Assembly: GCA_035571835.1 (NCBI GenBank) | Contig: DATNBU010000011.1 | Span: 62,001-126,000, forward strand | DNA length: 64,000 nt | Direction: 5' to 3' | Source of the DNA: Candidatus Limnocylindrales bacterium | GTDB lineage: Bacteria; Desulfobacterota; Binatia; UBA1149; CAITLU01 | Shown: piece after piece, positions 3,221-52,880 of the stretch | Layout of the letters: every line of letters starts with the position of its first letter | How positions within the stretch are numbered: position 1 is the stretch's first letter | The notes under the pieces: generated by a model | Database searches by the model: none | What the model saw: the letters and a program-made list of their open reading frames with translations, nothing else | What the model was told of the DNA's origin: nothing | Program-made: the position numbers and the translations under genes

Positions 3221-3380
3221 GTGCCCCTCCGTTTCACGACTGAACCAGTTCAGGACCGAACCAGCATCCGACGGCCCGACCGCCATCGAGCAAACGCGGA
3301 GCAAATGCTCTATCAGCCTGCTTCCAGACCGGCAAGGGAAGAAACCGGCAGAATTCGCGAATCTGCGGCGAAAGCTCCGC

Positions 3381-3701
3381 CTAAGACTGGCTCTCCGGGG
3401 TTGTGACTTTCAGCCCGTCGAGGTCGTCACTGACTTTGATCTGACAGCTCAGCCGCGAGTTGTCGGCAACGTTCGGCGCGAACGCCAGCATCGAATCCTC
3501 GGTCTCGCCGCGCGTGCCGACTTTCGCCAGCCACAGCTCGTCGACGAACACGTGGCAGGTCGCGCAGGCGCACTTGCCGCCGCAATCGGCGTCGATACCG
3601 GCCACGTTGTTGCGCCTGGCCGCCTGCATCACCGATTCGCCGCAGTCGGCCTCGACGGTCTGCTGGTTGCCGACGTGGTCGGTGAAAATGATCCTGGGCA
3701 T
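3381..3701 (-). CDS. 2Fe-2S ferredoxin of a P450 system (adrenodoxin/putidaredoxin type)
   Basis: A 106-residue ferredoxin starting at ATG 3701 ([11 protein letters not shown]). The four cluster ligands are Cys40, Cys46, Cys49 and Cys86 in the C-x5-C-x2-C...C spacing of vertebrate-type/putidaredoxin-type ferredoxins; the C-A-T-C-H motif is present and Cys44 is an extra cysteine. It lies last in a minus-strand run behind a P450 and a ferredoxin reductase, so it most likely carries electrons from the FAD reductase to the P450 haem. A 65-bp spacer with two hairpins separates it from the reductase gene. Confidence 0.93.
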
Positions 3702-3766: not shown

Positions 3767-4993
3767 CTAGACTGCATGGGCGGCTACGATCTGTTTCATC
3801 GACACGTCGGTATCGCCAAGCAAAGCCGGATCCGGCCGGGCGCCGCGTGCGATGAGCTGCTTCGATGCCATGAATTCCATCGGGCTGTTTACCGCATCGG
3901 TCGCTATCAGCCGGCCGTCCTTCAGATAGAACGCGGCGAACCTGCGATCGGCGGGGTTGCCGCGAACGACGATGTGGTCGTGACCTTCGCTCAACCCCGC
4001 AATCTGCAGCTTGAGGTCGTACTGGTCCGACCAGAACCACGGTACGTCTTCGGCCGGTCGCGGGCGGCCGAGAATGGCTGCGGCTGCGAGCTTTCCCTGC
4101 TCGATGGCGTTGTGGACGCTCTCCAGGCGGCCGGCGCGCTCGTAGTGGACGAGCGGACGCCGTGCGCAATCGCCGGCGGCGAATACGCGAGGATCGCTCG
4201 TGCGCGCATCGCGATCGACGACGATGCCGTTGTCGCATTCGATCCCGCACGCGCGCGCAAGCTCGTCGCACGGCTGGATGCCGACGCCGACGACGGCGAT
4301 ATCGGCGGCGATCTGCATGCCGTCGGCGAGTCGCGCTCCCTCGAGCCGTTCGCGCCCTTCCAGCGCCGCGAGCCTGGCGCCGCAGCGGATGTCGACGCCG
4401 CGCGAGCGATGCTCGCTCTCGAAGAATTCGGAGATGACCGGGCCGGCGACGCGCGCGAGCACGCGCGGCATTGCTTCGAGCACCGTCACGTCGAGCCCGC
4501 GCAGCCTCGCGACCGCTGCGACTTCCAGACCGATGTAGCCGGCGCCGACCACGAGCGCGCGCGCACCCGGCACGAGAGCTTCACCGATGCGGCGCGCGTC
4601 GGCCATCGTGCGCAGCTCGAAGACGCCGGCGAGCGACACGCCGGCGACCGGAAGCGCGCGTGGGCGCGATCCGGTTGAGAGCACCAGATTGTCGTACCCG
4701 ACCTCACTGCCGTCGGACAGCGAAACGACTCGCTGCGCGCAATCGATCGCATCGGCAGCGACACCTGTCTTCAGCTCGACACCGTTGTCGCCGTACCACG
4801 CGGCGGTCTTGAAATAGAGGCCGGCCTCGTCGAGCTCGCCTTTCAGGAATTCCTTCGAGAGCGGCGGCCTCTCGTACGGCGGAGCGGGCTCGTCGCCTAC
4901 GAGCGCGATCGTGCCGTCGTGCCCCCACTGACGAAGCGAGAATGCGACCTGCGCACCGGCCTGACCGGCGCCGACGATGACGATACGGGTCAT
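3767..4993 (-). CDS. FAD-dependent ferredoxin reductase (putidaredoxin/rhodocoxin reductase type)
   Basis: 408 residues, the usual size for class I P450 ferredoxin reductases. The N-terminal FAD-binding Rossmann motif is V-G-A-G-Q-A-G at residues 7-13; a second NAD(P)-binding motif G-A-G-Y-I-G-L-E lies near residue 150, and the FAD-contacting A-A-G-D-C-A motif is near residue 275. The protein passes electrons from NAD(P)H to the ferredoxin encoded downstream. It starts 39 nt after the P450 stop, consistent with one transcript; the start ATG has only a weak Shine-Dalgarno sequence, so translation may be coupled. Confidence 0.93.
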
Positions 4994-37184: not shown

Positions 37185-40100
37185 TCAGTTCGCCTCGGGC
37201 AGCGTCGTCGTCGTCGACGCTTCGCCCGATTCGTCGGCGGCTGCCGCAGCGGGACAGTGCGGCGTGCCGCTCAGGCCGACTGCCTTGCGCAGGATGGCGA
37301 GCGCATCGGCGGCACTGACCTTGTTGTCGCCGTTGTAGTCGCACCGCACCAGAGGACAGGTTCCCGTTCCAACCGCGGTTCGCAGCGCCGCAAGGGCATC
37401 GCCGGCGCTCAGCTTGTGGTCGTCGTTGGCGTCGCCGCAGAGGATTTCATCCCGCAGCGTCGTCGTCGTTACCCCGCATGAAGGAATCGAGATGCCGGCG
37501 CAGGTGCCGTTCGCGCAGATATCGTTCTGCGTGCACTCGTCGCCGTCGTTGCACGGGCTGCTGTCGGAATCGGCCGCGCTGCAGTTGTCGAGGGCCTCGT
37601 TGCACGACTCGCTGCAGTTGCCGTCACCGTCCGGACCGGGGCAGGGGTTACCGGCGTGGAGGCTGCACGTCCCGTTGTTGCAGGTGTCGGCGCCGTCGCA
37701 GAATGCGCCGTCGTCGCACGGCGAAGAGTTGCTGACGTGTGTGCACGAATCGGTGGCCTCGTTGCACGAATCGTTCGTGCAGGCCGTCGTGTCGCTGCAG
37801 TCGCGGGCCGTACCGGCCGTGCAGGCGCCGCCGACGCATTTCTCGCCCACCGTGCAGAACGCAGAATCGTCGCACGGAGCCTGGTCGGGCCTGGCCGTGT
37901 GCGAGCAGATGTCGCCACCCTCGTCGCAGCCGTCGTCGGTGCAGGGATTGGTATCGCTGCAGTCGCGCGTCGTTCCCGAGCACGCGCCGTCCTTGCACGT
38001 GTCGGCGGAAGTGCAGAACAGACCGTCGTCGCACGGCGCCGTGTTGTTGGTGTGCGTGCAGGTGTCGTTGACCTCGTCGCACGCATCGGTCGTGCAGGCG
38101 TTGGTATCCGCGCAGTTGCGCGGAGTACCCGAGCAGACGCCGCCGTTGCAGATGCCCTCGGTCGAACAGAACGCCGCGGTGCCGCAGCTCTGGCCGTTCG
38201 TGTTGATTTCGGCCGGGCATGCAATCGAGGTCCCGCTGCAGATCTCCGCCGTGTCGCAGATGCCGGTGGAAACCCGGCACACGGTCTGGCTCGTCGCGAG
38301 CAGATCGGCGGGGCAGGTTGCGGACGAACCCGGGCACAGCTCTGCAACGTCGCAGGCTCCTGCGGCGCTGCGACAGACGGTCTGGCTGGTGGCGAATGCA
38401 TCGGCCGGGCAGGCCGTCGACGATCCGGAACAGAGCTCGGCGGCGTCGCACGCACCGACGGCAGTGCGGCAGACCGCCTGACTCGAAGCGAACGCGTCGG
38501 CAGGACACGCCGGCGACGCTCCGGTGCAGCTCTCGGCCACATCGCACGAGCCGGACGCGCTTCGACAGACCGTCGACGAACCGGCAACCGCATTTGCCGG
38601 ACATGTCGCTGCTGCGCCGGTGCAGGTTTCGGCGGGATCGCACACGCCGGTCGATTCGCGGCACAGCGTCTGGCTCGATGCGAACGTATCCGACGGGCAC
38701 GAAGCGGAAGTGCCGGTGCACCCTTCGCTCGAGTCGCAGATGCCCGTCGATGCGCGGCACAGCGTGTTGAACGCAACCAGCGTGTCCGCCGGACAGGCGG
38801 CCGACTGCCCGGAACAGATCTCCGCAACGTCGCACGGGCCCGCCGATGCACGGCACGTCAGGTTCGAAACGAACGTGTCGGCCGGACACGCCTGCGACGA
38901 TCCCGGACAGAGTTCGGCTGCGTCACAGATTCCCGCGGCCGAGCGGCAGGTCGTTCCGGTAAGGAACGAGTCGGACGGACACGACGCGCTCGTTCCACTG
39001 CACGTCTCGGTCGCGTCGCATATGCCGGTTGATGAGCGGCAGATTGCACCGGACGCGAATGCATCGACCGGGCAGGCGGCTGCTGTACCCGAGCAGCTTT
39101 CCGCAGCGTCACAGATTCCAGCCGACGCGCGACACGTCGTAGCCGGCGACAGGAACGTGTCGACCGGACACGCGGGGCTGGTCCCGTTGCACTGTTCGAT
39201 CGTATCGCACGGTCCCGACAGCTGGCGGCACGTCGTTCCCGACGGGACGAGGCCGTCGGCCTGGCAATCCGGGCTCGCGCCCGAGCAGACCTCGCCCGGA
39301 TCGCATCCACCTGCCGACGGACGGCAGACGGTCGTGCTCGTCAGCAGCGAATCGGCAGGACACACAGCGCTCGATCCCGAGCATGTCTCGGCGGCGTCGC
39401 ATACGCCGACGGATCCGCGACACGTCGTCGCGGCCGAAAGGAACGAGTTGACCGGGCAGTTGACGCTGAGTCCGCTGCACGTCTCCGCCGAATCGCACAC
39501 GCCGCTCGACGTGCGGCAGATCGACGCCGTAGAGAGCACCGAGTCGGCCGGACACGCGGGACTCGTACCCGTGCAGGTCTCGACCGAATCGCACACGCCG
39601 GCCGCGCCGCGACAGATCGTGGCCGGTGATGCGAACGTATTTGCCGGACACGCAGCGGCCGATCCGCTGCAGGTCTCCGCACTGTCGCACGCATCGCTCG
39701 ATGCTCGGCACGTGACGGAAGGCGATGCGAACAGGTCCGTCGGACACGCCGGCGCGGTCCCGCTGCAGACTTCGACCGAATCGCAGACGCCGCCGGAGGC
39801 TCGGCATACCGTGTCGACCGCCACGAACGCATCGAACGGACACGCCCCCGATACTCCGGAGCAGAACTCCGCAGTGTCGCAGCTGCCTGCGGACGCGCGG
39901 CACGGAGTGGTCGTGGGCAGGAACGAATTGGCAGGGCACGAAGGGCCCGCTCCATTGCAGGTCTCGGCGACGTCGCACACGCCGGCCGAAGAACGACATG
40001 TCGTCGCAGTACCGAGGAACGAGTCCGCCGGGCACGACGCGCTGCCGCCGGTGCACGTCTCCGCCGTATCGCAGACGCCGGCGGAAGTGCGGCACGTCGT

Positions 40101-43100
40101 GGTGCTCGCGACGAACTGATCCGACGGGCAAGCGATCGCGTCTCCGGTGCAGCTCTCGGCCGTATCGCAGGCGCCGGCTGCGCTCCGGCACGGGACATTC
40201 GATGCAACGAATCCGTTTGCCGGGCAGCTTGCCGACGCGCCCGTGCAGGTTTCCGCCGCATCGCATACGCCGGCCGAGGCGCGGCACGTCAGCGTCGATG
40301 GAAAGAAGGAATCGAACGGGCAGGCTGCGCTGTTGCCGGAGCACGATTCTGCGCTGTCGCAGATTCCCGCCGAAGGCCGGCAGGCGGTGCTGGATGGGAG
40401 GAACGCATTGGCCGGGCAGGCGGCCGCCGAGCCGGAGCAGGTCTCGGCGGCATCGCAGATCCCATTCGACGTCCGGCACACGGTTGCCGTGGTCAGGAAC
40501 GAGTCTGTTGGGCATGCCGCGGCGGTTCCCGTGCACGCCTCGCTGGTATCGCAGACGCCGCTTGCCGGGCGGCACGTGACCGTCGAGGCCACGAAATCGT
40601 TGGCCGGACATGTCGCCGACGCTCCGGTGCAGGCCTCGGCAACGTCACAGATGTCCGCGGCGGCGCGACACGTGATGTCCGACGCGAGGAAAGAATCCGC
40701 AGGACATGCGGCGCCGCCCCCGGTGCACGACTCGACGCTGTCGCAGCTTCCGGCAGCAGCCCGGCAGACCGTGCTCGACGCAACGAATCCGTTGGCCGGG
40801 CATGCGGCCGTCGTGCCGGTGCAGCTCTCGGCCACGTCGCAGACGCCGGTCGAGCTGCGGCACACCGTCGACGCCGGCAGGAACAGATCGCCGGGACACG
40901 CGGCGCCGGTTCCGCTGCACGATTCACTGGTGTCGCAGACACCGGAAGCGGCGCGGCAGATCGACGACGTGGCGATGAACGCGTTGGTGGGGCAGGCCGC
41001 GGCGGTTCCGGTGCAGGATTCCGCGGTGTCGCAGACACCGGCCGACGCGCGGCAGACCGTCGTCGTCGGCACGAACGCATTGCCCGGGCACGCAGCGGAA
41101 GTTCCCGTGCAGCTCTCTACCGTGTCACAGATGCCGGCCGAGCCGCGGCATGTGACATCCGAAGCCCGGAACACGTCGGCCGGACATGCGGACGTCGACC
41201 CGCTGCAGAATTCGACGGTGTCGCAGACGCCCGCAGCCGTGCGGCACGCGGTATCGGACGCGGCGAAATCATTCGACGGACAATCGGGCGATGCGCCGTT
41301 GCAGTCTTCTTCGAGGTCGCACACTCCGGTGGCGTCGCGGCAGACGGTCGGGAAGTCGAGGAAATTGTCGATCGGACATGCACCCGACGATCCGGTGCAC
41401 GATTCGGCCGCGTCGCATACGCCGGCCGTCTGCCGGCAGACCGTGCTCGACGGCTGGAAAATATCGGCAGGACAACCGGCCGACGCTCCGGTGCAGAGCT
41501 CGGCCGTGTCGCAGACCCCCGTGGTCGCCCGGCACAGCGTGCTCGACGCAAGGAAGCCGTCGGCCGGACAAAGCGCGCTCGAGCCGGTGCAGGATTCGAC
41601 AGCATCGCAGACGCCGACCGTCGAGCGACAGACGATGTCGGACGCGACGAAGACGTTGCCCGGACACAGCGCGGTCGATCCCGTGCAACTCTCGGCGATG
41701 TCGCAGACACCGCCGGATTCGCGGCAGACCGTCGACGCTGAAACGAAAAGATCGACCGGGCAGGCGGCGGCCGCGCCCGTGCAGCTCTCGGCCGTGTCGC
41801 AGACGCCGGCGGACGAACGGCAGACCTGCGTGCTGGCGGACAGCGAATCCGAAGGACAGCTCGCCGCGGAGCCGGTGCACGATTCCGCCGGATCGCAGAT
41901 TCCGGCCGAGCCGCGACAGGTCGTTGCGACAGTTCGGAACAGGCACGTCACGGTATTGCAGCAGATGCCCGATTCGCACTGCTCGCTCAGGCCGACCGAG
42001 CCGTCACCGCAGATGCCTTCGACCGCGCCGATATCGCACGCCGTGCCCTGAGGCCGCGTCTCCCCGCGTTGATCGTTCGGCTGGCAGCGACGCAGCGTGC
42101 TTACGAGCGTGCCATCGGGCGTTCCCGGATTGCCGGCGTTCAGCGCGACGCTCGAGGAAGTCAGCTGCAGGTTTCGAGTGGTGCCGCCGTTGGTGGCGAG
42201 TGCGCCCGACAGTCCCGGATTCAGCGGTGCAGCAACCGTTCCGAACTGATCTCCGGTATTCGAAAATCCCGTGCAGCCGCCGATGTCGCGAACACCGATC
42301 AGGTTGTAGCCCTGGGAAACGACGGCTGCCGCGCTCGCGGTCGAGCAGTCGAACACCTTGTTGGCCGCAAGCGGGCTAAGATCCGTGTTGTTGGCGATGA
42401 TCGTGTTGCCGACGTTGACGGTGCCGGCGCCTCGCGCGAGACCGCCGCCGTCGCCGCCGCCGCTGGAATTGGCATCAGCGGTATTGCCCGCGATCGTCAC
42501 GTTGTTCATGAGCAGCACGCTCGACGCATCGCCGGACCAGAAGATCGCGCCGCCGCTGCCATCGGCAGAGTTGGCGACGAAGCTCGAGTTGGTGATGGTT
42601 GCGCCCGCGCCGTTGCTCGTGCTGGAGAACGCGCCGCCGTCGTTTGTGTTGGTATTGCCCGTGAAAAGGCTGCCGCTGATGGTCGTGACCGCGTTGGTAA
42701 CCGCCACACGAACGGCGCCTCCGGCCTTCGCACCGGTCGCCTGATTGCCGGTAAATTCGCAATCGCTGATCGTCAGCGTCGTTCCCGTAGCGGAGTTGAA
42801 GAATATTCCTGCGCCTTCGACCGCGTGACCGTTTCGTATGGTGACCCCCGAGACCGAAAAGTTTCCTTTCGTGATCTCGAAGACGCGTGTCGACGCCGTC
42901 CCCTCGACGAACGTCGCAGCCGCCCCGGCGCCGGTGATGACGAGATTGTTGGGCGTCGTGTCGCCGACGGTCAGTTGTGCGGTCGTCGAGTACGTGCCGG
43001 CCGGAACGAGGATCGTATCGTCGTTATAAGCGCCGCTGCCGACGCAGCCGCCGGTGTCGACGTCGTTGTTCGCGGATGCGATCGCCTCGCGCAGCGAGCA

Positions 43101-43253
43101 TGCTGGGCCGGTTCCGTTTTCGTCGGTCGTCGTATTGACGGTGATGGTTGCAGCGAACCCGCGATCGGCTGCGAGCGAGAGCAATGCGCCGAGCACCAGC
43201 GCACGCGCGGACAGACGGGTACGACGGCCACAAACCGGGCTCGGAAAAATCAT
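37185..43253 (-). CDS. Giant secreted protein: CSLREA/beta-helix, 39 Cys repeats, dockerin-like end
   Basis: 2022 residues from ATG 43253 (GGGGGAG just upstream). The signal peptide is SARALVLGALLSLAADRGFA. A CSLREA motif (C-S-L-R-E-A-I-A-S-A-N-N) opens a right-handed parallel beta-helix of about 360 residues like polymorphic outer-membrane proteins. Residues about 440-1680 hold 39 repeats by my count, nearly all exactly 32 residues, with Cys at positions 2, 9, 15 and 22. Next is about 200 residues of other C-D-D-G/C-x-G-G-x-C disulfide loops, then two EF-hand-like loops (DANDDHKLSAGDALAALR and DYNGDNKVSAADALAILR) as in type I dockerins, with TTTTL linkers. Probably a long, rigid, calcium-binding surface fibre. 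Confidence 0.88.
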   Translation of the reverse strand: MIFPSPVCGRRTRLSARALVLGALLSLAADRGFAATITVNTTTDENGTGPACSLREAIASANNDVDTGGCVGSGAYNDDTILVPAGTYSTTAQLTVGDTTPNNLVITGAGAAATFVEGTASTRVFEITKGNFSVSGVTIRNGHAVEGAGIFFNSATGTTLTISDCEFTGNQATGAKAGGAVRVAVTNAVTTISGSLFTGNTNTNDGGAFSSTSNGAGATITNSSFVANSADGSGGAIFWSGDASSVLLMNNVTIAGNTADANSSGGGDGGGLARGAGTVNVGNTIIANNTDLSPLAANKVFDCSTASAAAVVSQGYNLIGVRDIGGCTGFSNTGDQFGTVAAPLNPGLSGALATNGGTTRNLQLTSSSVALNAGNPGTPDGTLVSTLRRCQPNDQRGETRPQGTACDIGAVEGICGDGSVGLSEQCESGICCNTVTCLFRTVATTCRGSAGICDPAESCTGSAASCPSDSLSASTQVCRSSAGVCDTAESCTGAAAACPVDLFVSASTVCRESGGVCDIAESCTGSTALCPGNVFVASDIVCRSTVGVCDAVESCTGSSALCPADGFLASSTLCRATTGVCDTAELCTGASAGCPADIFQPSSTVCRQTAGVCDAAESCTGSSGACPIDNFLDFPTVCRDATGVCDLEEDCNGASPDCPSNDFAASDTACRTAAGVCDTVEFCSGSTSACPADVFRASDVTCRGSAGICDTVESCTGTSAACPGNAFVPTTTVCRASAGVCDTAESCTGTAAACPTNAFIATSSICRAASGVCDTSESCSGTGAACPGDLFLPASTVCRSSTGVCDVAESCTGTTAACPANGFVASSTVCRAAAGSCDSVESCTGGGAACPADSFLASDITCRAAADICDVAEACTGASATCPANDFVASTVTCRPASGVCDTSEACTGTAAACPTDSFLTTATVCRTSNGICDAAETCSGSAAACPANAFLPSSTACRPSAGICDSAESCSGNSAACPFDSFFPSTLTCRASAGVCDAAETCTGASASCPANGFVASNVPCRSAAGACDTAESCTGDAIACPSDQFVASTTTCRTSAGVCDTAETCTGGSASCPADSFLGTATTCRSSAGVCDVAETCNGAGPSCPANSFLPTTTPCRASAGSCDTAEFCSGVSGACPFDAFVAVDTVCRASGGVCDSVEVCSGTAPACPTDLFASPSVTCRASSDACDSAETCSGSAAACPANTFASPATICRGAAGVCDSVETCTGTSPACPADSVLSTASICRTSSGVCDSAETCSGLSVNCPVNSFLSAATTCRGSVGVCDAAETCSGSSAVCPADSLLTSTTVCRPSAGGCDPGEVCSGASPDCQADGLVPSGTTCRQLSGPCDTIEQCNGTSPACPVDTFLSPATTCRASAGICDAAESCSGTAAACPVDAFASGAICRSSTGICDATETCSGTSASCPSDSFLTGTTCRSAAGICDAAELCPGSSQACPADTFVSNLTCRASAGPCDVAEICSGQSAACPADTLVAFNTLCRASTGICDSSEGCTGTSASCPSDTFASSQTLCRESTGVCDPAETCTGAAATCPANAVAGSSTVCRSASGSCDVAESCTGASPACPADAFASSQAVCRTAVGACDAAELCSGSSTACPADAFATSQTVCRSAAGACDVAELCPGSSATCPADLLATSQTVCRVSTGICDTAEICSGTSIACPAEINTNGQSCGTAAFCSTEGICNGGVCSGTPRNCADTNACTTDACDEVNDTCTHTNNTAPCDDGLFCTSADTCKDGACSGTTRDCSDTNPCTDDGCDEGGDICSHTARPDQAPCDDSAFCTVGEKCVGGACTAGTARDCSDTTACTNDSCNEATDSCTHVSNSSPCDDGAFCDGADTCNNGTCSLHAGNPCPGPDGDGNCSESCNEALDNCSAADSDSSPCNDGDECTQNDICANGTCAGISIPSCGVTTTTLRDEILCGDANDDHKLSAGDALAALRTAVGTGTCPLVRCDYNGDNKVSAADALAILRKAVGLSGTPHCPAAAAADESGEASTTTTLPEAN
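38213..41933 (-). repeat. Array of 39 96-bp coding repeats
   Basis: Each unit encodes 32 residues (three late units encode 31). Cysteine codons are conserved, but the DNA between units is well diverged, so the array is old or under diversifying pressure. The bias creates long, meaningless open frames on the opposite strand. Confidence 0.85.
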
Positions 43254-43473
43254 GACTCCCCCTGTTGCGGGCGTGAGACAGCTATGGATTCCGGCTTTCT
43301 CTTTCGCGCGAACGGCCATCACGCGATCGATTCGCCGGATCCGGCCCGTGGCTCAGCGTCGGCGGGCCCAAATCGCCAACTACAACGGTTTTCACCTGAT
43401 GTCGATGTAAAAATCCGAATGACGCGGGCGTGATGACGCTTGGATCACAGTGCGCTGCGACTAAGGCGCGACG

Positions 43474-45761: not shown

Positions 45762-47198
45762 ATGGCCCAGACTGCGCAGCTTCGTGTCATTCACTCCGCC
45801 GAAAACGAGTGCGAGCGGATCTACAAGATTCAACGCGAAGCCTACCTTCGTCATCCTTATCCGACGGCCGAGGAGCGGCGCGCGAACCTTTCGAAGCTCG
45901 AACAGATTCTCGCGGCCAACGTGGACCAGATCGCAGCGATGATCGGAAAGGACTTCGGACATCGCTGCGCCGAAGAGACCAAGCTTCTGGAAATCTTCAC
46001 GAGCATCGACGGCATCCGTGACGCACGAAAGAAGGTCGGCAAATGGATGGCCCCTGAGCGGCGCCACGTCTCCATCCTGTTTGCGACCGGAAAGAACCGC
46101 GTGATCCCTCAGCCGAAGGGCGTGGTCGGAATCGTCGTTCCGTGGAATTACCCGCTGTTTCTGCTGATGGGGCCGCTGACGAGCGCGCTCGCGGCCGGCA
46201 ATCGCTGCATGGTCAAGATGGCGGCCAATTCGACCAATCTCTGCAAGTTCCTCGCGGGCAAGTTCGCCGAAGTCTTTCCGGAAGACACGGTGGCGATCCT
46301 GCCGGGAGTCAAGGGTTCGGATTTTTCGAGCCTGCCGTTCGATCACCTGCTGTTCACGGGCTCGGCCGATGCCGGGCGCAACGTGATGCGCGCGGCGGCA
46401 GAGAACCTGACTCCGGTCACGCTCGAGCTTGGCGGGAAGTCGCCGACGGTCGTCTGCGAGGACTTCGACGTCGAAACCGCGGCCTCGCGCATCCTGTACG
46501 CGAAATACGTCAACGCCGGCCAGACCTGCCTCGCGCCGGACTACGTGATGGTTCCGAAGGACAAGCGCGACAAGTTCGTCGAGGCCTGCAAGCGCATTCT
46601 CCCGCAGCGGTATCCGGATACGTCCGACCCGAGCTACACGTCGCTGATCGACGACAAGGCCTACAAGCGGCTGCGTGCGACCCTCGATGATGCGGTCGCC
46701 AAGGGCGCCGAAGTGGTGCCGCTCGTTCCCGGCGCGCAGTTCGACGACAAGCTTCGCAAATTTCCCCCGCATCTCGTGCTCAATCCGACCGAAGACATGA
46801 TGGTCATGCGCGAGGAAATCTTCGGGCCACTGCTGCCGGTCAAGACCTACGACCATCTCGACGACGTGCTCCGCTACGTGAACTCGAAGGACCGCCCGCT
46901 CGGCTTCTACCTGTTCACGAACGACAAGGAGCGCGAGGAGAAGCTGATCTACGGCACCATTTCCGGAGGCGTCACCGTCAACAACTGCGTCATGCACGTG
47001 GCGCAGCACGACATGCCGTTCGGCGGCGTGGGTTCGAGCGGCATGGGGCACTATCATGCACGCGAAGGCTTCGTCGAAATGAGCAAGCTGCGGCCGGTGC
47101 ACACCAATCCGAAGCTGCCTGGTGTTGAGCAGTTTTATCCGCCGTACGGCAGGAAGCACTCCCTGCTCTTCAACATGCTGTTGCGGTTCAAGAGATAG
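45762..47198 (+). CDS. Aldehyde dehydrogenase (coniferyl/fatty aldehyde type)
   Basis: 478 residues, GGGAGG seven bases before the ATG. The ALDH motifs are V-P-W-N-Y-P, the general base Glu222 in L-E-L-G-G-K-S-P and the catalytic Cys256 in G-Q-T-C-L-A-P-D-Y, with P-F-G-G-V-G-S-S-G-M-G near the end. The G-Q-T-C-L-A-P-D-Y form and the hydrophobic C-terminal segment (LLFNMLLRFKR) resemble class 3-like fatty-aldehyde and coniferyl-aldehyde dehydrogenases. It oxidises an aldehyde to the acid with NAD(P)+. It could follow the P450 in alkane oxidation, but it is 40 kb away. Confidence 0.9.
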   Translation: MAQTAQLRVIHSAENECERIYKIQREAYLRHPYPTAEERRANLSKLEQILAANVDQIAAMIGKDFGHRCAEETKLLEIFTSIDGIRDARKKVGKWMAPERRHVSILFATGKNRVIPQPKGVVGIVVPWNYPLFLLMGPLTSALAAGNRCMVKMAANSTNLCKFLAGKFAEVFPEDTVAILPGVKGSDFSSLPFDHLLFTGSADAGRNVMRAAAENLTPVTLELGGKSPTVVCEDFDVETAASRILYAKYVNAGQTCLAPDYVMVPKDKRDKFVEACKRILPQRYPDTSDPSYTSLIDDKAYKRLRATLDDAVAKGAEVVPLVPGAQFDDKLRKFPPHLVLNPTEDMMVMREEIFGPLLPVKTYDHLDDVLRYVNSKDRPLGFYLFTNDKEREEKLIYGTISGGVTVNNCVMHVAQHDMPFGGVGSSGMGHYHAREGFVEMSKLRPVHTNPKLPGVEQFYPPYGRKHSLLFNMLLRFKR

Positions 47199-47228
47199 GG
47201 GCTGTTGAGATTCAAGAGCGGGGACGGC

Positions 47229-47475
47229 CGCGGATAAGGGCCCATCTGCTTCGTTGGATTTCGCTTCGCTCGCTACAACGTACGGGAAGTACGCCTCCGC
47301 TCGCGAAGCGAAATCCGCCTCGCATCTGGACCCTTCTCCGCGACCGCTGTCCGCGCGGACGTCGATAAGGGCCCATCTCCTTCGTTCGACATCGGGCCGG
47401 TCGCTTCAACGTGGCTCCGCCACGCCTCAGCTCCCTTTACCCGACGTCTGCCTCGGATCTGGACCCTTCTCGACG
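47229..47475. repeat. Two tandem hairpin elements with covarying stems
   Basis: Element A (47229-47342) and element B (47360-47475) share their end sequences (AAGGGCCCATCT on the left, ATCTGGACCCTT on the right) and a central CAACG...CGCCTC. The paired arms differ in sequence between copies but stay complementary. Outer stems are CGCGGA/TCCGCG in A and CGTCGA/TCGACG in B. Middle stems are 14 bp in A (47256-47269 with 47303-47316) and 9 bp with one mismatch in B (47388-47396 with 47440-47448). Apical stems are CGTAC/GTACG and CGTGGC/GCCACG. They lie between convergent genes. No named family recognised. Confidence 0.8.
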
Positions 47476-47493
47476 CCCGCGGTTTTGTGGTGG

Positions 47494-47516
47494 GCGGGCT
47501 TGAGCCCGCGACCTCT
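47494..47516. terminator. Hairpin followed by T-rich tract
   Basis: GCGGGCT (47494-47500) pairs with AGCCCGC (47503-47509). On the plus strand ACCTCTTTATTTTT follows, overlapping the stop of the convergent permease gene. It could stop transcription from the aldehyde dehydrogenase side and, less clearly, from the permease side. Confidence 0.55.
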
Positions 47517-48857
47517 TTATTTTTGTCTGACGAAGAAGGCGTAGGCGGGGAGGGCTGTGGCGGTTACGGCCAGGGCGGCGGCGCATTCGATCGGGCGGCC
47601 GATGAGCATTGCGATGGCGATGGCGGCGTTGGCTACCAGGTAGAGCGCAGGGACGAGCGGGTAGCCCCATGCGCGATACGGGCGCGGGCGGTGGGGATGG
47701 CGGCGGCGGAGCTGGTAGAGCGCGGCGGTGTCGGCGATCGTTGCGAGCACGATCGCGAACGTCGTGTAGTCGAGGACGCTCGGGAAACGCCGCAGCAGCA
47801 CGATCAGCGCGATCGCGGTCATGGCCTGAACCGCGATCGCGATGTGCGGGGTACGGTAGCGCTCATGCACTCCCTGGACCGAACGGAAGAACAGCCCGTC
47901 GATCGCCATGGCGTAGGCGATGCGAGGTCCGACGAGGATCGTCGCGTTCAGACAGCTCAGGATCGAGCCGAGGATCAGAACCGACGCGATGGTCGCGCCG
48001 TGCTCGCCGAAGAATACGCGCGCAGCGGCTTCGCCGACGTTGGCGTTTGCGCGCATCGCATCGATCGACAGCGCATCGAGATACGCGAGGTTGACGGCCA
48101 GGTAGATCGCCGTCGAGATGGCGAGGCCGGCGAACAGCGAGAGCGGAAGATTGCGCTCGGGGCGGCGGATCTCACTCGCGACGTACACCGACGCGTTCCA
48201 GCCGAGATAGCTGAACAGCACCGGCGAGAGCGCCAGCCCGAAGCCCATCGCGGTAATCCCGCCGCCGGGGGCAACAGCAGATGGCGCCGGAGCGGGCGTG
48301 GCCGTCCCTGCAAGGTGCAGGAACATCGGTCCGATCACCGCGAGCGCGGCCAGCGCAGCGATCTTAAGGCCGGCGGTTACGTTGTTGAGCCACGCCGCGA
48401 GCCGCACGCCGCGAAAATGAATGGCCGACGTGGCGAGCGTGATCGCGACCGCGAATGCGGTGCGCACTCCTGCGCTCATCGGGACGAAATGCGCCAGTCC
48501 GTCGACGAAGCCGACGGCAAGCGTCGCGACGGTTCCGGCATAGATCACGAAGAACGACAGCCAGCCGATCACGAAGCCGGCGAGCGGATGCCACGCCTCG
48601 CGAAGGTAGACGTAGTCGCCGCCGGCGTGCGGGTACATGGCGCCGAGCTCGGCGTTGGCGAGCGCGCCGGCCAGCGACAGCACGCCTCCGAGCACCCAGG
48701 CCGCAAGGAACGCGCCCGCGCTCGGCAGCGCGGCTGCTACCTGGCCCGGCGTCAGGAAGATCCCGACGCCGATCACCGACGAGACGACGAGCAGCGTCGC
48801 GTCGGCCAGCGACAGGGCCGGCTCGAGGCGATCGAGTGGATGACGATCCGAAGCCAT
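47517..48857 (-). CDS. APC-family amino-acid permease
   Basis: 446 residues from ATG 48857 (GTG 48860 is also possible). Twelve hydrophobic segments and the APC helix-1 motif S-S-V-I-G-V-G-I-F are present, with P-H-A-G-G-D-Y-V-Y-L in helix 3 and G-W-N-A-S-V-Y-V-A-S-E-I-R-R-P near helix 6. The layout fits LAT/YjeH-like amino-acid transporters of the inner membrane. Substrate unknown. Confidence 0.9.
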   Translation of the reverse strand: MASDRHPLDRLEPALSLADATLLVVSSVIGVGIFLTPGQVAAALPSAGAFLAAWVLGGVLSLAGALANAELGAMYPHAGGDYVYLREAWHPLAGFVIGWLSFFVIYAGTVATLAVGFVDGLAHFVPMSAGVRTAFAVAITLATSAIHFRGVRLAAWLNNVTAGLKIAALAALAVIGPMFLHLAGTATPAPAPSAVAPGGGITAMGFGLALSPVLFSYLGWNASVYVASEIRRPERNLPLSLFAGLAISTAIYLAVNLAYLDALSIDAMRANANVGEAAARVFFGEHGATIASVLILGSILSCLNATILVGPRIAYAMAIDGLFFRSVQGVHERYRTPHIAIAVQAMTAIALIVLLRRFPSVLDYTTFAIVLATIADTAALYQLRRRHPHRPRPYRAWGYPLVPALYLVANAAIAIAMLIGRPIECAAALAVTATALPAYAFFVRQK

Positions 48858-48908: not shown

Positions 48909-51900
48909 TTACAGCTTGGGCTTCTTGCACTTCAGCTGATCGTGATCGTCGTTCGGCTCGCAGATGCGCGTGCGCTCGATGCACACGTCACCGATGCGCA
49001 GCTTGAGGAACACGCGCTCGTCCGCCGGTGACGCATCGACCTCGCTCGCCTTGACCTGGAACTTCCAGATTCCTTTCTTGAGCTTGAAACTGACCTTGGT
49101 CACGCCCGGCGCGTCGGCCGAGAACTTGTACGACGTGTTCGAGGTGTTGCCCGTAAAGCTCGCCGCCGGAATCAACTGATTGAACTCGGGCGTGTCCGGC
49201 GAGCCGATCGTGATTTCGACGCTGTTCGCGACCGGGTCGAACCCGCGTCCGGCGGTATTGACGAAGCCCTTGATCTGCAGCTTGTCGTTGCCGGCGCCTG
49301 TCGGGTACTTCATCGAGACCTTCTCGAGCATCGAACGGTATTCGGACGTGCACTCGCCGGACGATGTCGCAACGCCGGAATTGAGGTTGCCGCTTCGATG
49401 GATGTCGCGCGACACCGTTGCCCACTGCACGCTCTTGGTGCCGGAACGCTCGTACGACGCGCCTGTTCCCCACGCGTACAGATTTCCTTCCCGGGTGATC
49501 GCGACGACATCGAGCGTGCCGTTGTTGTCGATATCGCCGGCGGTCGCGGCGCCGACCATCCAGCCGCCGGTGAACTTCGGCCAGCCCGCCGGCTCGCCGC
49601 CGCCGGCCCGGAATGCGTGCAGGTAGTAACCGCCGCTGCCCTGCAGGAGCTCGGCGATCGAGTCGCCGTCGATGTCGGCAACCGCGGGAGAGGAGAGGAA
49701 CTGGAGGTCCTCCTCGCGTTGCGGAAACGCAGGCAGTCCGTGCCCGTCGGATGCCGACCACGCCATGAGCTGATGGTCACCGGGACCCTGGAATGCCGGG
49801 CCCTGGTTGTCGACGAGCTGATGGGCGCCGACGCTCGGCAGCGCAAAATCGAGCGTGCCGTTGGAAAAGAAGTCGCCGACGGCTCCGCTGCTGAGCAGCG
49901 CGAACGTGAGCGGAAAGTCGTCGCTCGATGCGTCCGGATTGCTGGCGAGAGTCAGCGACGGGTTGAAGACGTTGTACTTTCCGGACGTGGATCCGAAGTA
50001 CGACAGGCCCGTGCCCTGCAGGAGATACGCGGGTCCGTTGTTGCCGTTGATGAAGACTTCGTCGTCGCCGTCATCGTCGACGTCGGCAAGCGCCGGCGCA
50101 GCGGTGACTCCGTGTCCCACGGTCGGCAGCAGGTCTTTCGTCAGCATTCCGAGTCTGGCCGGCCAGCCTTCGAGGAACGGTCCGCTCGCGTTGGGCGTCT
50201 CGACGAGCGCGGGATCGTCGTTGCCGAAACGCGACACCGCATAGATTCGGCCGTTCACGTTGTCGAGGGAGTTCGAAAGCAGCCCGAACGTCGGGTTGCT
50301 GATGAAGAAGTTCGAGGTTTCCCCGCGCACGTATTCTTCGTTGGATCCGAGCACGATCTCGAGATGGCCGTCGCCGTCGAGGTCGCCGACCGACGGCGAG
50401 CTGAGCAGCTTGGTGCCGATCGAGCCGACCGGCTGTCCGCTGACGAGCTTCCAGGTCACCTGGTGGTTGGTCGCATTGACGCTCGACATGCGGTCCTGGT
50501 CGACGATCAGCACCGGAAAGCCGGCGTGCGTCGTCCCGTTGCTGTTCCAGACGTACAGATGCCGGTCCATCGCAGCGACCAGGATCTCGAGCGTTCCGTC
50601 GCCGTCGAGATCGGCCAGGGTCGGCGCCGCAAGCACGCCGTAGTCGAGACGGTTGGCTTCGTTGCGGATCGCAGGGTCGGAATAGACGGGATTGAGGGAA
50701 ACCGGGAAGCCCGGAAGCGCGGTTCCGTCGTCGCGGAACACGTAGACCGAGCCGTCCATGTCGGCCGCGACGACCTCGTCGTCGCCGTCGTTGTCGACGT
50801 CGCCGATCGCGACGCCGGCGAGAATCGACGAATGATAGTCGTTGCCGAGCGCGAGCGGAGCGAAGGATGCCGAGCTCGCGAGCTGCATGGGATTGGTCTC
50901 GACCGGCCAGCCGGCAAGCTCGCTGCCGCTGCCGTCGAGGATGTGCAGCTTGCCGTCGGCCGCTCCGAAAATGATCTCCTGTGCGCCGTCACCGTCCATG
51001 TCGTGCAGCAGTGGCGCAGAGTCGCCCGATACGCCGACCTCGATCGGAAAGCCGGGCATCAGCGACGAGTCGTGCTCGAGCGTGACGTTGCGCCGCGCCT
51101 GTCCCACGTTGCCGAGACTGTCCTGGACGGTCACGCGAATGGTGACGGCGTAGGACTCGTCGAAATCATCCTCGTTGGTACGCGGCAGCGTCAGGCTGGC
51201 GAAACCGCATTCGGCGGCTGCGGCTGCCGTGTCGAACGTTGCGAGCAGGCTGTTCTCGATCGGAGTTCCGCCGAGCGCGGCCGAAGCGATCGTGTGGCCG
51301 ATCATCGCGAAATCGGATTCGAGCGGATCGACGCCGCACGCCCAGTCGACCACGTAGCTCGCGTTGTTGGCATCGCGCTGCGCAGCCGCCGTGCCGGTGA
51401 TCGACAGGATCGGCGTCACGGTGGGATCGACGTTGACGAACCACGCCGGCGACTGGATGTCGGCCTCGGGCGGGATCGTGCCCGCGTCGATCGCCTCGAT
51501 TGCCGTGCGCACGTTGGCCCTGCCGTAGCCGAAATACTTGTCGAAGCCGGCGTGCGACGGGAAGCGCTCGTCGATCAGGTCGGGAAACAGGATGAGCAGC
51601 GTCCCGGCGGGCGTCAGCGTCGGGCTGACTGCCGAGAAATCGATATCGTCTGCCGTCATGCGCATCAGCTGGTAGATTTCGGTCGGCGACAGCGGCTTGC
51701 CGCTGGGGTGCGGAGAGATCGCCCCGAGCTCGATCTGGTTTTTTGCGCGCGCGAGCATCAGCGCGAAGATGCCGGCGGCGCGACCGGTGGCTTCCGACGA
51801 GCATGAATTGGATGCGATCGCCGCGTCGGCGCGGCCGCTGTAGTTCGTGCAGCCGTTGAGCAGCAGGTTGGTCGGATTGGTGACCGCCGTGCCGTCTTTC

Positions 51901-52880
51901 GGGCGCACCGAGTTTGCCCAGAAGCCGTGCGTGTATACGGCCGGGAAATTGTGGTGGTAGCTCTGCTCGTCGGCCGCAGACAGCACCATCGGCACGCCCT
52001 GCTCGAACGCGTACTCGACCGCATTCTGCGCGAGCTTGGTGTTGTTGAGGGCTCCGAGCGCCTCGGAAATCACGCTGACGCCGCGGTCGAGCGCGTATGC
52101 CACGCCGGCGCCGAAATCGTTGCCGTCGGCGACGAAGCTGTCGCTCACCTTGATCGGCACGAACATCGCATTCGGCGCGACACCCCACGATCCGCCGTCG
52201 TTCACTTCTCCGCTCGAGTCCTTGGATTCGCCGGTTCCGTGTCCGTAGTCCGCGTCGTCGAACGGATCGTTGTCGTGCTCGTGCGTGTCCCATCCGCAGA
52301 TGTCGTCGACGTAGCCGTTGGCGTCGTCGTCGACACCGTCGCTGAACACGAGGATCAGGTCGCGTGGATCGCGGATTCCGTTTCCGTCGACGTCGCTCAC
52401 CCTCGAATCGGTCGCATAATCGTTGATGTTGAAGACGCCGTCGCCGTTCTTGTCGTAGACGAGGCTGCCTTCGGGTAGCGGCAGCTCGGCCTGGTTCAGC
52501 GCGGCCTTGCGGACGTTGTCGTGGTCGTAGCGGATGCCGGAGTCGAGGTGGGCCACCGTCACGTCGGGACGCCCCGTCGTGAGTTGCCACGCGGTATCGA
52601 TGCTCATGCCGGCCACACCGCCGAGCTCCTCCGGCGTATTCGGCAGCGAAGGATCGACCAGGGACGACGCGCGGAAGTCGTACTGGCCGATCTCGTTCGG
52701 TCTCACGGGCGGCGCGACGACCGCCGTATGCATGTAATCCTTGTAGTCGTTGGGGTCCGCACAGCCGCCGCAGGCCGGGTATGGAAATTCGGCATGGGCA
52801 GGGGCCGTGACGAGGATCGTCGCCAGAACCGAGGCCAGAAAGCGTATCGACGGTCGGAGGCAGGAACTTAGAAGGCTCAT
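48909..52880 (-). CDS. Secreted S8 subtilisin-like protease with FG-GAP repeats
   Basis: 1323 residues; signal peptide IRFLASVLATILVTAPAHA. The catalytic Asp is in A-H-L-D-S-G-I, His in D-Y-G-H-G-T, and Ser in S-S-E-A-T-G-R-A-A-G, where the usual G-T-S-x-A-x-P has Gly for Pro. A calcium-loop insert (D-K-N-G-D-G-V, D-V-D-G-N-G-I-R-D) separates Asp and His. Residues about 610-1150 hold FG-GAP/VCBS units (D-x-D-G-D-G-x-x-E-I), likely a beta-propeller. Residues 1186-1323 are a C-terminal domain also found in the DUF3604 protein. Extracellular or surface-bound proteolysis is likely. Confidence 0.88.
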   Translation of the reverse strand: MSLLSSCLRPSIRFLASVLATILVTAPAHAEFPYPACGGCADPNDYKDYMHTAVVAPPVRPNEIGQYDFRASSLVDPSLPNTPEELGGVAGMSIDTAWQLTTGRPDVTVAHLDSGIRYDHDNVRKAALNQAELPLPEGSLVYDKNGDGVFNINDYATDSRVSDVDGNGIRDPRDLILVFSDGVDDDANGYVDDICGWDTHEHDNDPFDDADYGHGTGESKDSSGEVNDGGSWGVAPNAMFVPIKVSDSFVADGNDFGAGVAYALDRGVSVISEALGALNNTKLAQNAVEYAFEQGVPMVLSAADEQSYHHNFPAVYTHGFWANSVRPKDGTAVTNPTNLLLNGCTNYSGRADAAIASNSCSSEATGRAAGIFALMLARAKNQIELGAISPHPSGKPLSPTEIYQLMRMTADDIDFSAVSPTLTPAGTLLILFPDLIDERFPSHAGFDKYFGYGRANVRTAIEAIDAGTIPPEADIQSPAWFVNVDPTVTPILSITGTAAAQRDANNASYVVDWACGVDPLESDFAMIGHTIASAALGGTPIENSLLATFDTAAAAAECGFASLTLPRTNEDDFDESYAVTIRVTVQDSLGNVGQARRNVTLEHDSSLMPGFPIEVGVSGDSAPLLHDMDGDGAQEIIFGAADGKLHILDGSGSELAGWPVETNPMQLASSASFAPLALGNDYHSSILAGVAIGDVDNDGDDEVVAADMDGSVYVFRDDGTALPGFPVSLNPVYSDPAIRNEANRLDYGVLAAPTLADLDGDGTLEILVAAMDRHLYVWNSNGTTHAGFPVLIVDQDRMSSVNATNHQVTWKLVSGQPVGSIGTKLLSSPSVGDLDGDGHLEIVLGSNEEYVRGETSNFFISNPTFGLLSNSLDNVNGRIYAVSRFGNDDPALVETPNASGPFLEGWPARLGMLTKDLLPTVGHGVTAAPALADVDDDGDDEVFINGNNGPAYLLQGTGLSYFGSTSGKYNVFNPSLTLASNPDASSDDFPLTFALLSSGAVGDFFSNGTLDFALPSVGAHQLVDNQGPAFQGPGDHQLMAWSASDGHGLPAFPQREEDLQFLSSPAVADIDGDSIAELLQGSGGYYLHAFRAGGGEPAGWPKFTGGWMVGAATAGDIDNNGTLDVVAITREGNLYAWGTGASYERSGTKSVQWATVSRDIHRSGNLNSGVATSSGECTSEYRSMLEKVSMKYPTGAGNDKLQIKGFVNTAGRGFDPVANSVEITIGSPDTPEFNQLIPAASFTGNTSNTSYKFSADAPGVTKVSFKLKKGIWKFQVKASEVDASPADERVFLKLRIGDVCIERTRICEPNDDHDQLKCKKPKL

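What the first reader, a model, noticed from the sequence alone, without database searches (positions are those of the whole stretch)
47229..47475. Tandem structured elements with compensatory changes in three stems
Two adjacent elements of about 115 bp keep the same loops and end sequences but have different, still complementary, outer, middle and apical stems. Compensatory change in three separate helices is strong evidence that the fold itself is kept. They sit between convergent genes. They may be a non-coding RNA, a bidirectional 3'-end structure, or a folded mobile palindrome. I do not recognise a named family.
Basis: seen in the sequence. Interest (0 to 1): 0.75.

Follow-up and report, generated by a model that had tools for sequence, protein, structure and literature searches.

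The report
Widespread mobile hairpin at stop codons
Two neighbouring DNA hairpins in this genome are copies of an unnamed repeat that occurs 37 times in the genome and in about a dozen bacterial phyla, often right after a gene's stop codon; they are likely non-autonomous mobile DNA, predicted to work through one folded strand.

Summary
The two elements (47223-47349, 47354-47482) are copies of a ~125-nt imperfect hairpin with 37 copies in this genome. In 31 aligned copies 24 of 37 pairs change on both sides and 97.5% of cells pair; slid structures reach 40% at most. Pairing is kept on the minus strand: 79 G-U cells against 2 A-C. A model from this genome alone finds all 80 motif places in 79 loci from about a dozen phyla; a wider model finds it in 74 of 148 genomes of the phylum. 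Rfam has no match. Positions turn over: 1 of 37 copies shares both flanks with a copy of the congener. In related genera the hairpin is the core of a ~155-bp unit with ~20-bp inverted ends; 15 of 22 such units have target duplications of at least 5 bp (swapped flanks 0.7). In other phyla it often abuts a stop codon (40 of 72, random 1.7). I read it as a MITE/REP-like non-autonomous mobile element that folds on one strand. No transposase was identified, and this genome's own copies show no target duplication.

The parts
47223..47349 (-). element 1; the minus strand is the strand whose pairing is conserved
   Evidence: R1 hit 131.6 bits (R1 was built from copies that include it); BLAST family of the genome
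47354..47482 (-). element 2, tandem copy, 72% identical to element 1
   Evidence: R1 hit 111.5 bits (also among the sequences of R1); BLAST 72%
47225..47244 (-). element 1, outer arm, 3' side on the minus strand
   Evidence: MFE structure; covarying helix 1
47327..47346 (-). element 1, outer arm, 5' side on the minus strand
47256..47269 (-). element 1, middle stem arm
   Evidence: 14-nt perfect inverted repeat with 47303-47316
47303..47316 (-). element 1, middle stem, other arm
47277..47283 (-). element 1, apical stem, 3' side
   Evidence: covarying helix 4
47289..47295 (-). element 1, apical stem, 5' side; loop UUCCC between the sides
47325..47326 (-). first GA of an invariant GA/GA internal loop (minus strand CCA-GA-TGC)
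   Evidence: invariant columns in 31 of 31 copies
47245..47246 (-). second GA of the same internal loop (minus strand GCA-GA-TGG)
   Evidence: invariant columns in 31 of 31 copies
45762..47198 (+). upstream gene, aldehyde dehydrogenase; 24 nt lie between its stop codon and element 1
   Evidence: ORF; PF00171
47517..48860 (-). convergent gene, amino-acid permease
   Evidence: ORF; PF13520

Best explanation
The two elements are copies of a widespread repeat that is likely a non-autonomous mobile DNA element (MITE/REP-like), predicted to depend on the folding of its minus strand into a long hairpin. Shown: 37 dispersed copies here, strong covariation, minus-strand pairing, relatives in about a dozen phyla (by record titles, mostly metagenome bins), frequent placement directly at a stop codon in other phyla, and in related genera inverted ends with target-site duplications of about 5 bp. 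Inferred: that a transposase supplied in trans moves it; that insertion into or next to a stop codon is favoured because the first bases of the element restore a stop (target T plus RR of the element); and that the folded strand itself (single-stranded DNA, or an RNA copy) is what is recognised, which would explain why its pairing is conserved. Not known: the transposase, and whether the copies of this genome can still move.
For: Copies: 37 model matches in the genome, plus 4 weak ones on the opposite strand of the same copies. Turnover: 1 of 37 copies shares both flanks with one of the 12 copies held from the congener G004 (test: at least 80 aa at 55% identity or more within 1.5 kb; shared flanks are up to 93% identical); the congener has the same dehydrogenase and permease genes with 1.9 kb of other DNA between them and no R1 hit in that locus. 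Ends: in genus g48, ~155-bp units with ~20-bp inverted ends; one left flank aligns at 90-93% to two relatives up to within one base of the element and stops there; of 36 end pairs (33 from g48, 2 from G118, 1 from G128) 23 have a duplication of at least 5 bp, swapped flanks mean 1.1-1.2, maximum 5; of the 22 that hold the hairpin core, 15 (swapped 0.7, maximum 4). Strand: G-U 115 against A-C 14 in the arms of 79 relatives, 79 against 2 in this genome. Stop codons: 40 of 72 against 1.7 (maximum 6) for random anchors, right side 3 of 76; one such gene has 682 aa against 680-683 in its 15 closest hits.
Against: Copies of this genome show no target duplication at any fixed pair of offsets and no extra outer inverted repeat (z -0.5); their stop-codon spacing is looser. 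No partner transposase was found: Y1 transposase genes are commoner in element-bearing genomes (55 of 74 against 35 of 74), but 11 of 37 genomes with at least 10 matches have none, and 0 of 42 loci fetched for a Y1 gene hold an element; one element locus, L304, happens to have a Y1 gene. Two long end pairs in G081 enclose ordinary genes, read by eye. The G047 boundary has a rearranged right flank, so no complete empty site is shown. In five Pseudomonas loci the element sits at one place after purH, which looks vertical rather than mobile.
Confidence: 0.62

Rival explanations
1. A structured non-coding RNA family read from the minus strand (antisense or independent), multiplied in the genome because it is useful.
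For: G-U pairs are kept on the minus strand, the GA/GA loop and hairpin motifs are near invariant, covariation is very strong, and the Pseudomonas copies are at one place.
Against: The conserved strand is antisense to the neighbouring gene in 47 of 66 loci across phyla and 62 of 89 in the order (simple gene caller); no promoter-like site at 47100-47600 (one consensus type only); positions are not conserved between congeners; sizes, interchangeable cores and target duplications in g48 are those of a transposon.
Confidence: 0.22
2. A bidirectional transcription terminator: GC-rich hairpin with an A run before and a T run after it.
For: Many relatives have AAAAAG before and CTTTTT after the hairpin, directly after stop codons and partly between convergent genes.
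Against: In this genome and in the Pseudomonas loci the runs are missing; no terminator-like site found; a terminator needs neither conserved internal loops nor one-strand pairing.
Confidence: 0.1
3. An attC-like site: a single-strand hairpin recombined by a tyrosine recombinase.
For: Bottom-strand folding, variable stems with conserved unpaired bases, place right after a stop codon (attC features are recalled).
Against: Scattered copies, at most short tandem runs such as four within 0.9 kb, no cassette array seen; inverted ends with target duplications in g48 do not fit integron recombination. Integrases were not searched for.
Confidence: 0.04

Closest known systems
Bacterial MITEs (Correia, ERIC, QMITE, Chunjie of Geobacter uraniireducens), as summarised in the review PMC10969869 (passages seen; the Chunjie paper itself is not held)
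   Same: Short, no gene, tens of copies, intergenic, stable stem-loop; inverted ends and target duplications in g48; the review says that direct repeats wane with age, which fits the copies here
   Different: One hairpin core recurs across about a dozen phyla; strand-specific covariation; close stop-codon abutment. Whether Chunjie belongs to the same sequence family could not be tested
REP / REPIN repeats with RAYT or TIRYT transposases (PMC3733652: abstract, section 16 and part 1 of section 17 read)
   Same: Chromosomal palindromes, mostly downstream of genes, GT pairs in stems, found in several phyla; some RAYT-like genes are flanked by inverted repeats
   Different: About 125 nt rather than 20-40; no conserved unpaired GTAG or CGTC tag; 0 of 42 Y1 loci carry it; target duplications in g48, which Y1 transposases are not known to make (recall)
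Unnamed 'predicted short RNA elements' of Geobacter metallireducens, 24 copies (PMC2700814: passages and figure legends only)
   Same: Central palindrome GRCGTAGCGCTGCTACGCC resembles, by eye, the apical hairpin GGCGTAGC...GCTACGYC of several relatives
   Different: The alignment is in a supplement that was not read; identity not tested

Membership tests
MITE | short (<500 bp), multicopy, no coding capacity | tested here: met
   37 copies of ~125 nt; coding capacity judged from length alone
MITE | terminal inverted repeats | tested here: inconclusive
   met in g48; 19 of 79 relatives have a second right arm with at most 7 of 20 mismatches, 0 of 79 in shuffled segments; not found in this genome
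MITE | target-site duplication | tested here: inconclusive
   met in g48 and relatives, 15 of 22 hairpin units; not met in this genome
MITE | autonomous partner with the same ends | tested here: inconclusive
   none in the two long end pairs examined in G081; one search lists only part of its 123 matches, and no other genome was searched for this
REP/REPIN | unpaired GTAG or CGTC tag beside a 20-40 nt palindrome | tested here: not met
   no such conserved tag in 31 aligned copies; CGTC occurs in some copies but in the paired, variable outer stem; size ~125 nt
REP/REPIN | flanks a RAYT gene | tested here: not met
   0 of 42 loci fetched for a Y1 gene; one element locus has a Y1 gene; G003 has 36 matches at E <= 0.01 and no Y1_Tnp match
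Rfam families | match at gathering score | tested here: not met
   0 in the window; none at the element's place in 20 of the 80 held relatives
Intrinsic terminator | GC stem followed by T run | tested here: not met
   0 found at 47100-47600 (that scan allows loops of 3-8 only)
attC | R and L boxes with an IntI-type recombinase | not tested
   no integrase search was made

The most novel reading that the evidence does not exclude
A class of mobile DNA shared by about a dozen bacterial phyla that is recognised as a folded single strand, inserts into stop codons and restores them with its own first bases, and keeps its hairpin by selection on that one strand, while its terminal repeats can carry different palindromic cores.
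Probability: 0.25. Interest if true: 0.8.

Novelty: new variant of a known kind. Interest (0 to 1): 0.58.

Why it matters
If right, one structured repeat family, without an Rfam match and without a name in the papers searched, sits in half of the sampled genomes of a phylum, often at the 3' ends of genes. It comes with a covariance model and clear ends in one genus, so the missing transposase, the use of stop codons as targets and the role of a folded strand become testable.

Tried and rejected
Known RNA family: rejected after cmscan of the window at gathering score, of 47150-47550 at E up to 10 (only MIR2084, E 4.9), and of 20 relatives. One search gave two matches, both in L176 and away from its element (4811-4935): a c-di-AMP riboswitch at 3267-3500 and TwoAYGGAY at 185-343.

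Y1/RAYT transposase as the mover: association across 148 genomes (OR 3.2, p 0.0013, not corrected for kinship), but 11 of 37 copy-rich genomes lack it and 0 of 42 Y1 loci hold the element; not adopted. In the one element locus with a Y1 gene (L304) the element lies inside the 3' end of the transposase reading frame.

Recurrent neighbour gene: all-against-all comparison of ORFs in 80 loci gave families that I took for generic ones, and a Pseudomonas region that I recognised by eye as purH-purD; no dedicated partner.

Phage or plasmid spread: one relative gave no blastn match in 'plasmids' and 'phages'; the 2 pattern matches in viral contigs have no R1 hit at E <= 1. L147 was dropped as a likely chance match of the pattern: it shows no matching arms by eye and was not given to the model searches.

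Extra outer stem in this genome: not supported. Replication-strand bias: looked at by eye for two one-contig genomes, too few and confounded, dropped. Autonomous element with a gene inside the hairpin: by eye, half-sites in this genome gave no such pair.

Paper searches: a 14-base core string gave 0 papers, a 10-base one 36, of which the 20 listed look unrelated. Two further Geobacter/Pelobacter genome papers were searched for passages only; the passages name no such element (PMC2996986, PMC3543383).

Full report
Observation. The window holds two tandem hairpins between an aldehyde dehydrogenase gene and a convergent amino-acid permease gene. They are 72% identical. Both fold far better than shuffles, and better on the minus strand (z -11.5 and -9.9) than on the plus strand (-6.8 and -4.3).

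Family in this genome. BLAST with the pair found more than 30 further places. A covariance model R1 of 31 copies finds 37 copies in the genome, plus 4 weak matches on the opposite strand of the same copies. In the 31 copies, 24 of 37 pairs have changes on both sides, 97.5% of cells pair (shuffled 84.6%, slid 30-40%), and the covariation score is 0.354 against 0.121 shuffled and at most 0.067 slid. The structure was derived from these same sequences, which favours it in the slid control. Over all 37 copies own arms pair much better than swapped arms (z -9.7).

Strand. On the minus strand the non-Watson-Crick cells are 79 G-U, 2 A-C and 27 others (the structure comes from the minus-strand alignment). 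In 79 of 80 relatives (one lies at a contig end), in arms that lie almost wholly outside the search pattern, the counts are 115 G-U against 14 A-C; read on the plus strand 19 against 103. RNA folding energy is lower on the minus strand in 76 of 79, DNA folding energy in 75 of 79. A GA/GA internal loop is invariant in 31 of 31 copies. So the folded minus strand is what is kept. Whether as RNA or as single-stranded DNA is not decided by these data.

Spread. In the order, 9 of 13 genomes have matches, for example 36 in G003. I dropped L147 as likely chance. In the other 79 loci R1, built from this genome alone, finds all 80 pattern places on the same strand, each over the full model except one cut by a contig end; the loci were chosen by the motif, but the outer arms were not part of it, and they pair far better than swapped arms (31.5 against 18.3). 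Record titles name Deltaproteobacteria, Nitrospirota, Rokubacteria/Methylomirabilota, Pseudomonas and other Proteobacteria, Bacillota, Bacteroidota, Omnitrophota, Chlamydiae, Chlorobiota, Gemmatimonadetes, Melainabacteria, Chloroflexi and a Kaiserbacterium; most are metagenome bins, so single assignments may be wrong. In the 88 matches of these loci covariation is again strong (711 cells changed on both sides, shuffled 207, slid 120-208), on an alignment fitted to the model. With a wider model R2, 74 of 148 genomes of the phylum have it (counts there are capped at 23 candidates); a fuller search gives 58 matches in a 1.8-Mb genome.

Mobility. Of 37 copies in this genome one shares both flanks with one of the 12 copies of its congener G004, and two more share one flank. 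G004 has the dehydrogenase and permease genes (82% and 80% nucleotide identity) with 1.9 kb of other DNA between them and no model hit in that locus. In genus g48 (G047, G081, G107) the hairpin is the core of a ~155-bp unit with ~20-bp inverted ends. One G047 copy begins within one base of where its left flank stops aligning to two relatives (90% and 93%); its right flank is rearranged. Exact 5-base duplications at the best fixed offset occur in 8 of 18 copies (swapped flanks: mean 0.11, maximum 2 in 1000). Allowing small shifts, 23 of 36 end pairs have one of at least 5 bases (swapped mean 1.1-1.2, maximum 5 in 500); 22 of the 36 hold the hairpin core and 15 of these have it (swapped 0.7, maximum 4); 33 of the 36 come from g48, two from G118 and one from G128. 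G081 has 123 matches to the end sequence (backward control 4), in pairs of 68 to 209 bp. By eye several of these units carry quite different palindromic cores, so ends and core look like separable modules. Against this, copies of this genome show no target duplication.

Stop codons. In the orientation gene, stop, element, a stop that ends an open frame of at least 100 codons lies 32 to 17 bases before the motif CATCTGC in 40 of 72 relatives with enough flank; random anchors give 1.7 (maximum 6), the right side 3 of 76. At exactly -22 the triplets include 10 TAG, 5 TAA and 2 TGA of 79. One such gene, a rhamnulose-1-phosphate aldolase/dehydrogenase, has 682 aa like its 15 closest hits of 680-683, so its stop looks native; only this one was tested by search. 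In five Pseudomonas loci and one Bacteroidota bin the element follows a gene that I recognise as purH by its protein end. I infer that the element enters or abuts stop codons, target T plus its own RR restoring a stop. In this genome the spacing is looser.

Mover. Not found. Y1 transposase presence is correlated with the element (55 of 74 against 35 of 74) but neither needed nor adjacent. No whole insertion sequence with the g48 ends was seen in the little that was examined.

Known kinds. Rfam has nothing. MITEs and REPs are the nearest kinds. A Geobacter genome paper describes 24 unnamed elements with a similar central palindrome (legend only). So it works like a MITE or REP, but membership is not complete: ends and duplications are shown only in related genera, and no transposase is known.

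Noticed in passing
window 37185-43322 (-): 2045-aa ORF with 21 stretches matching the Pfam Disintegrin profile, a Cys-rich tandem repeat that seems unusual for a bacterium.
   Followed up: no
window 48909-52880 (-): 1323-aa subtilase with FG-GAP/beta-propeller repeats.
   Followed up: no
L416-L430 (G081): One set of terminal inverted repeats encloses many different palindromic cores, 68 to 209 bp.
   Followed up: partly
L151, L153, L156, L163, L211 (Pseudomonas) and L158 (Bacteroidota bin): Element directly after what looks like the purH stop codon, before purD in Pseudomonas.
   Followed up: partly
L087, L089, L101, L102, L104: Variant with a longer apical insert shared by this genome and its congener G004.
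   Followed up: no
L304 (G019) 1474-2622: Element lies inside the 3' end of a Y1 transposase reading frame.
   Followed up: partly
L091 2001-2073 (this genome, C17:48123-48195): A 73-nt deletion form that keeps the outer arms and internal loop but lacks the upper hairpin.
   Followed up: no
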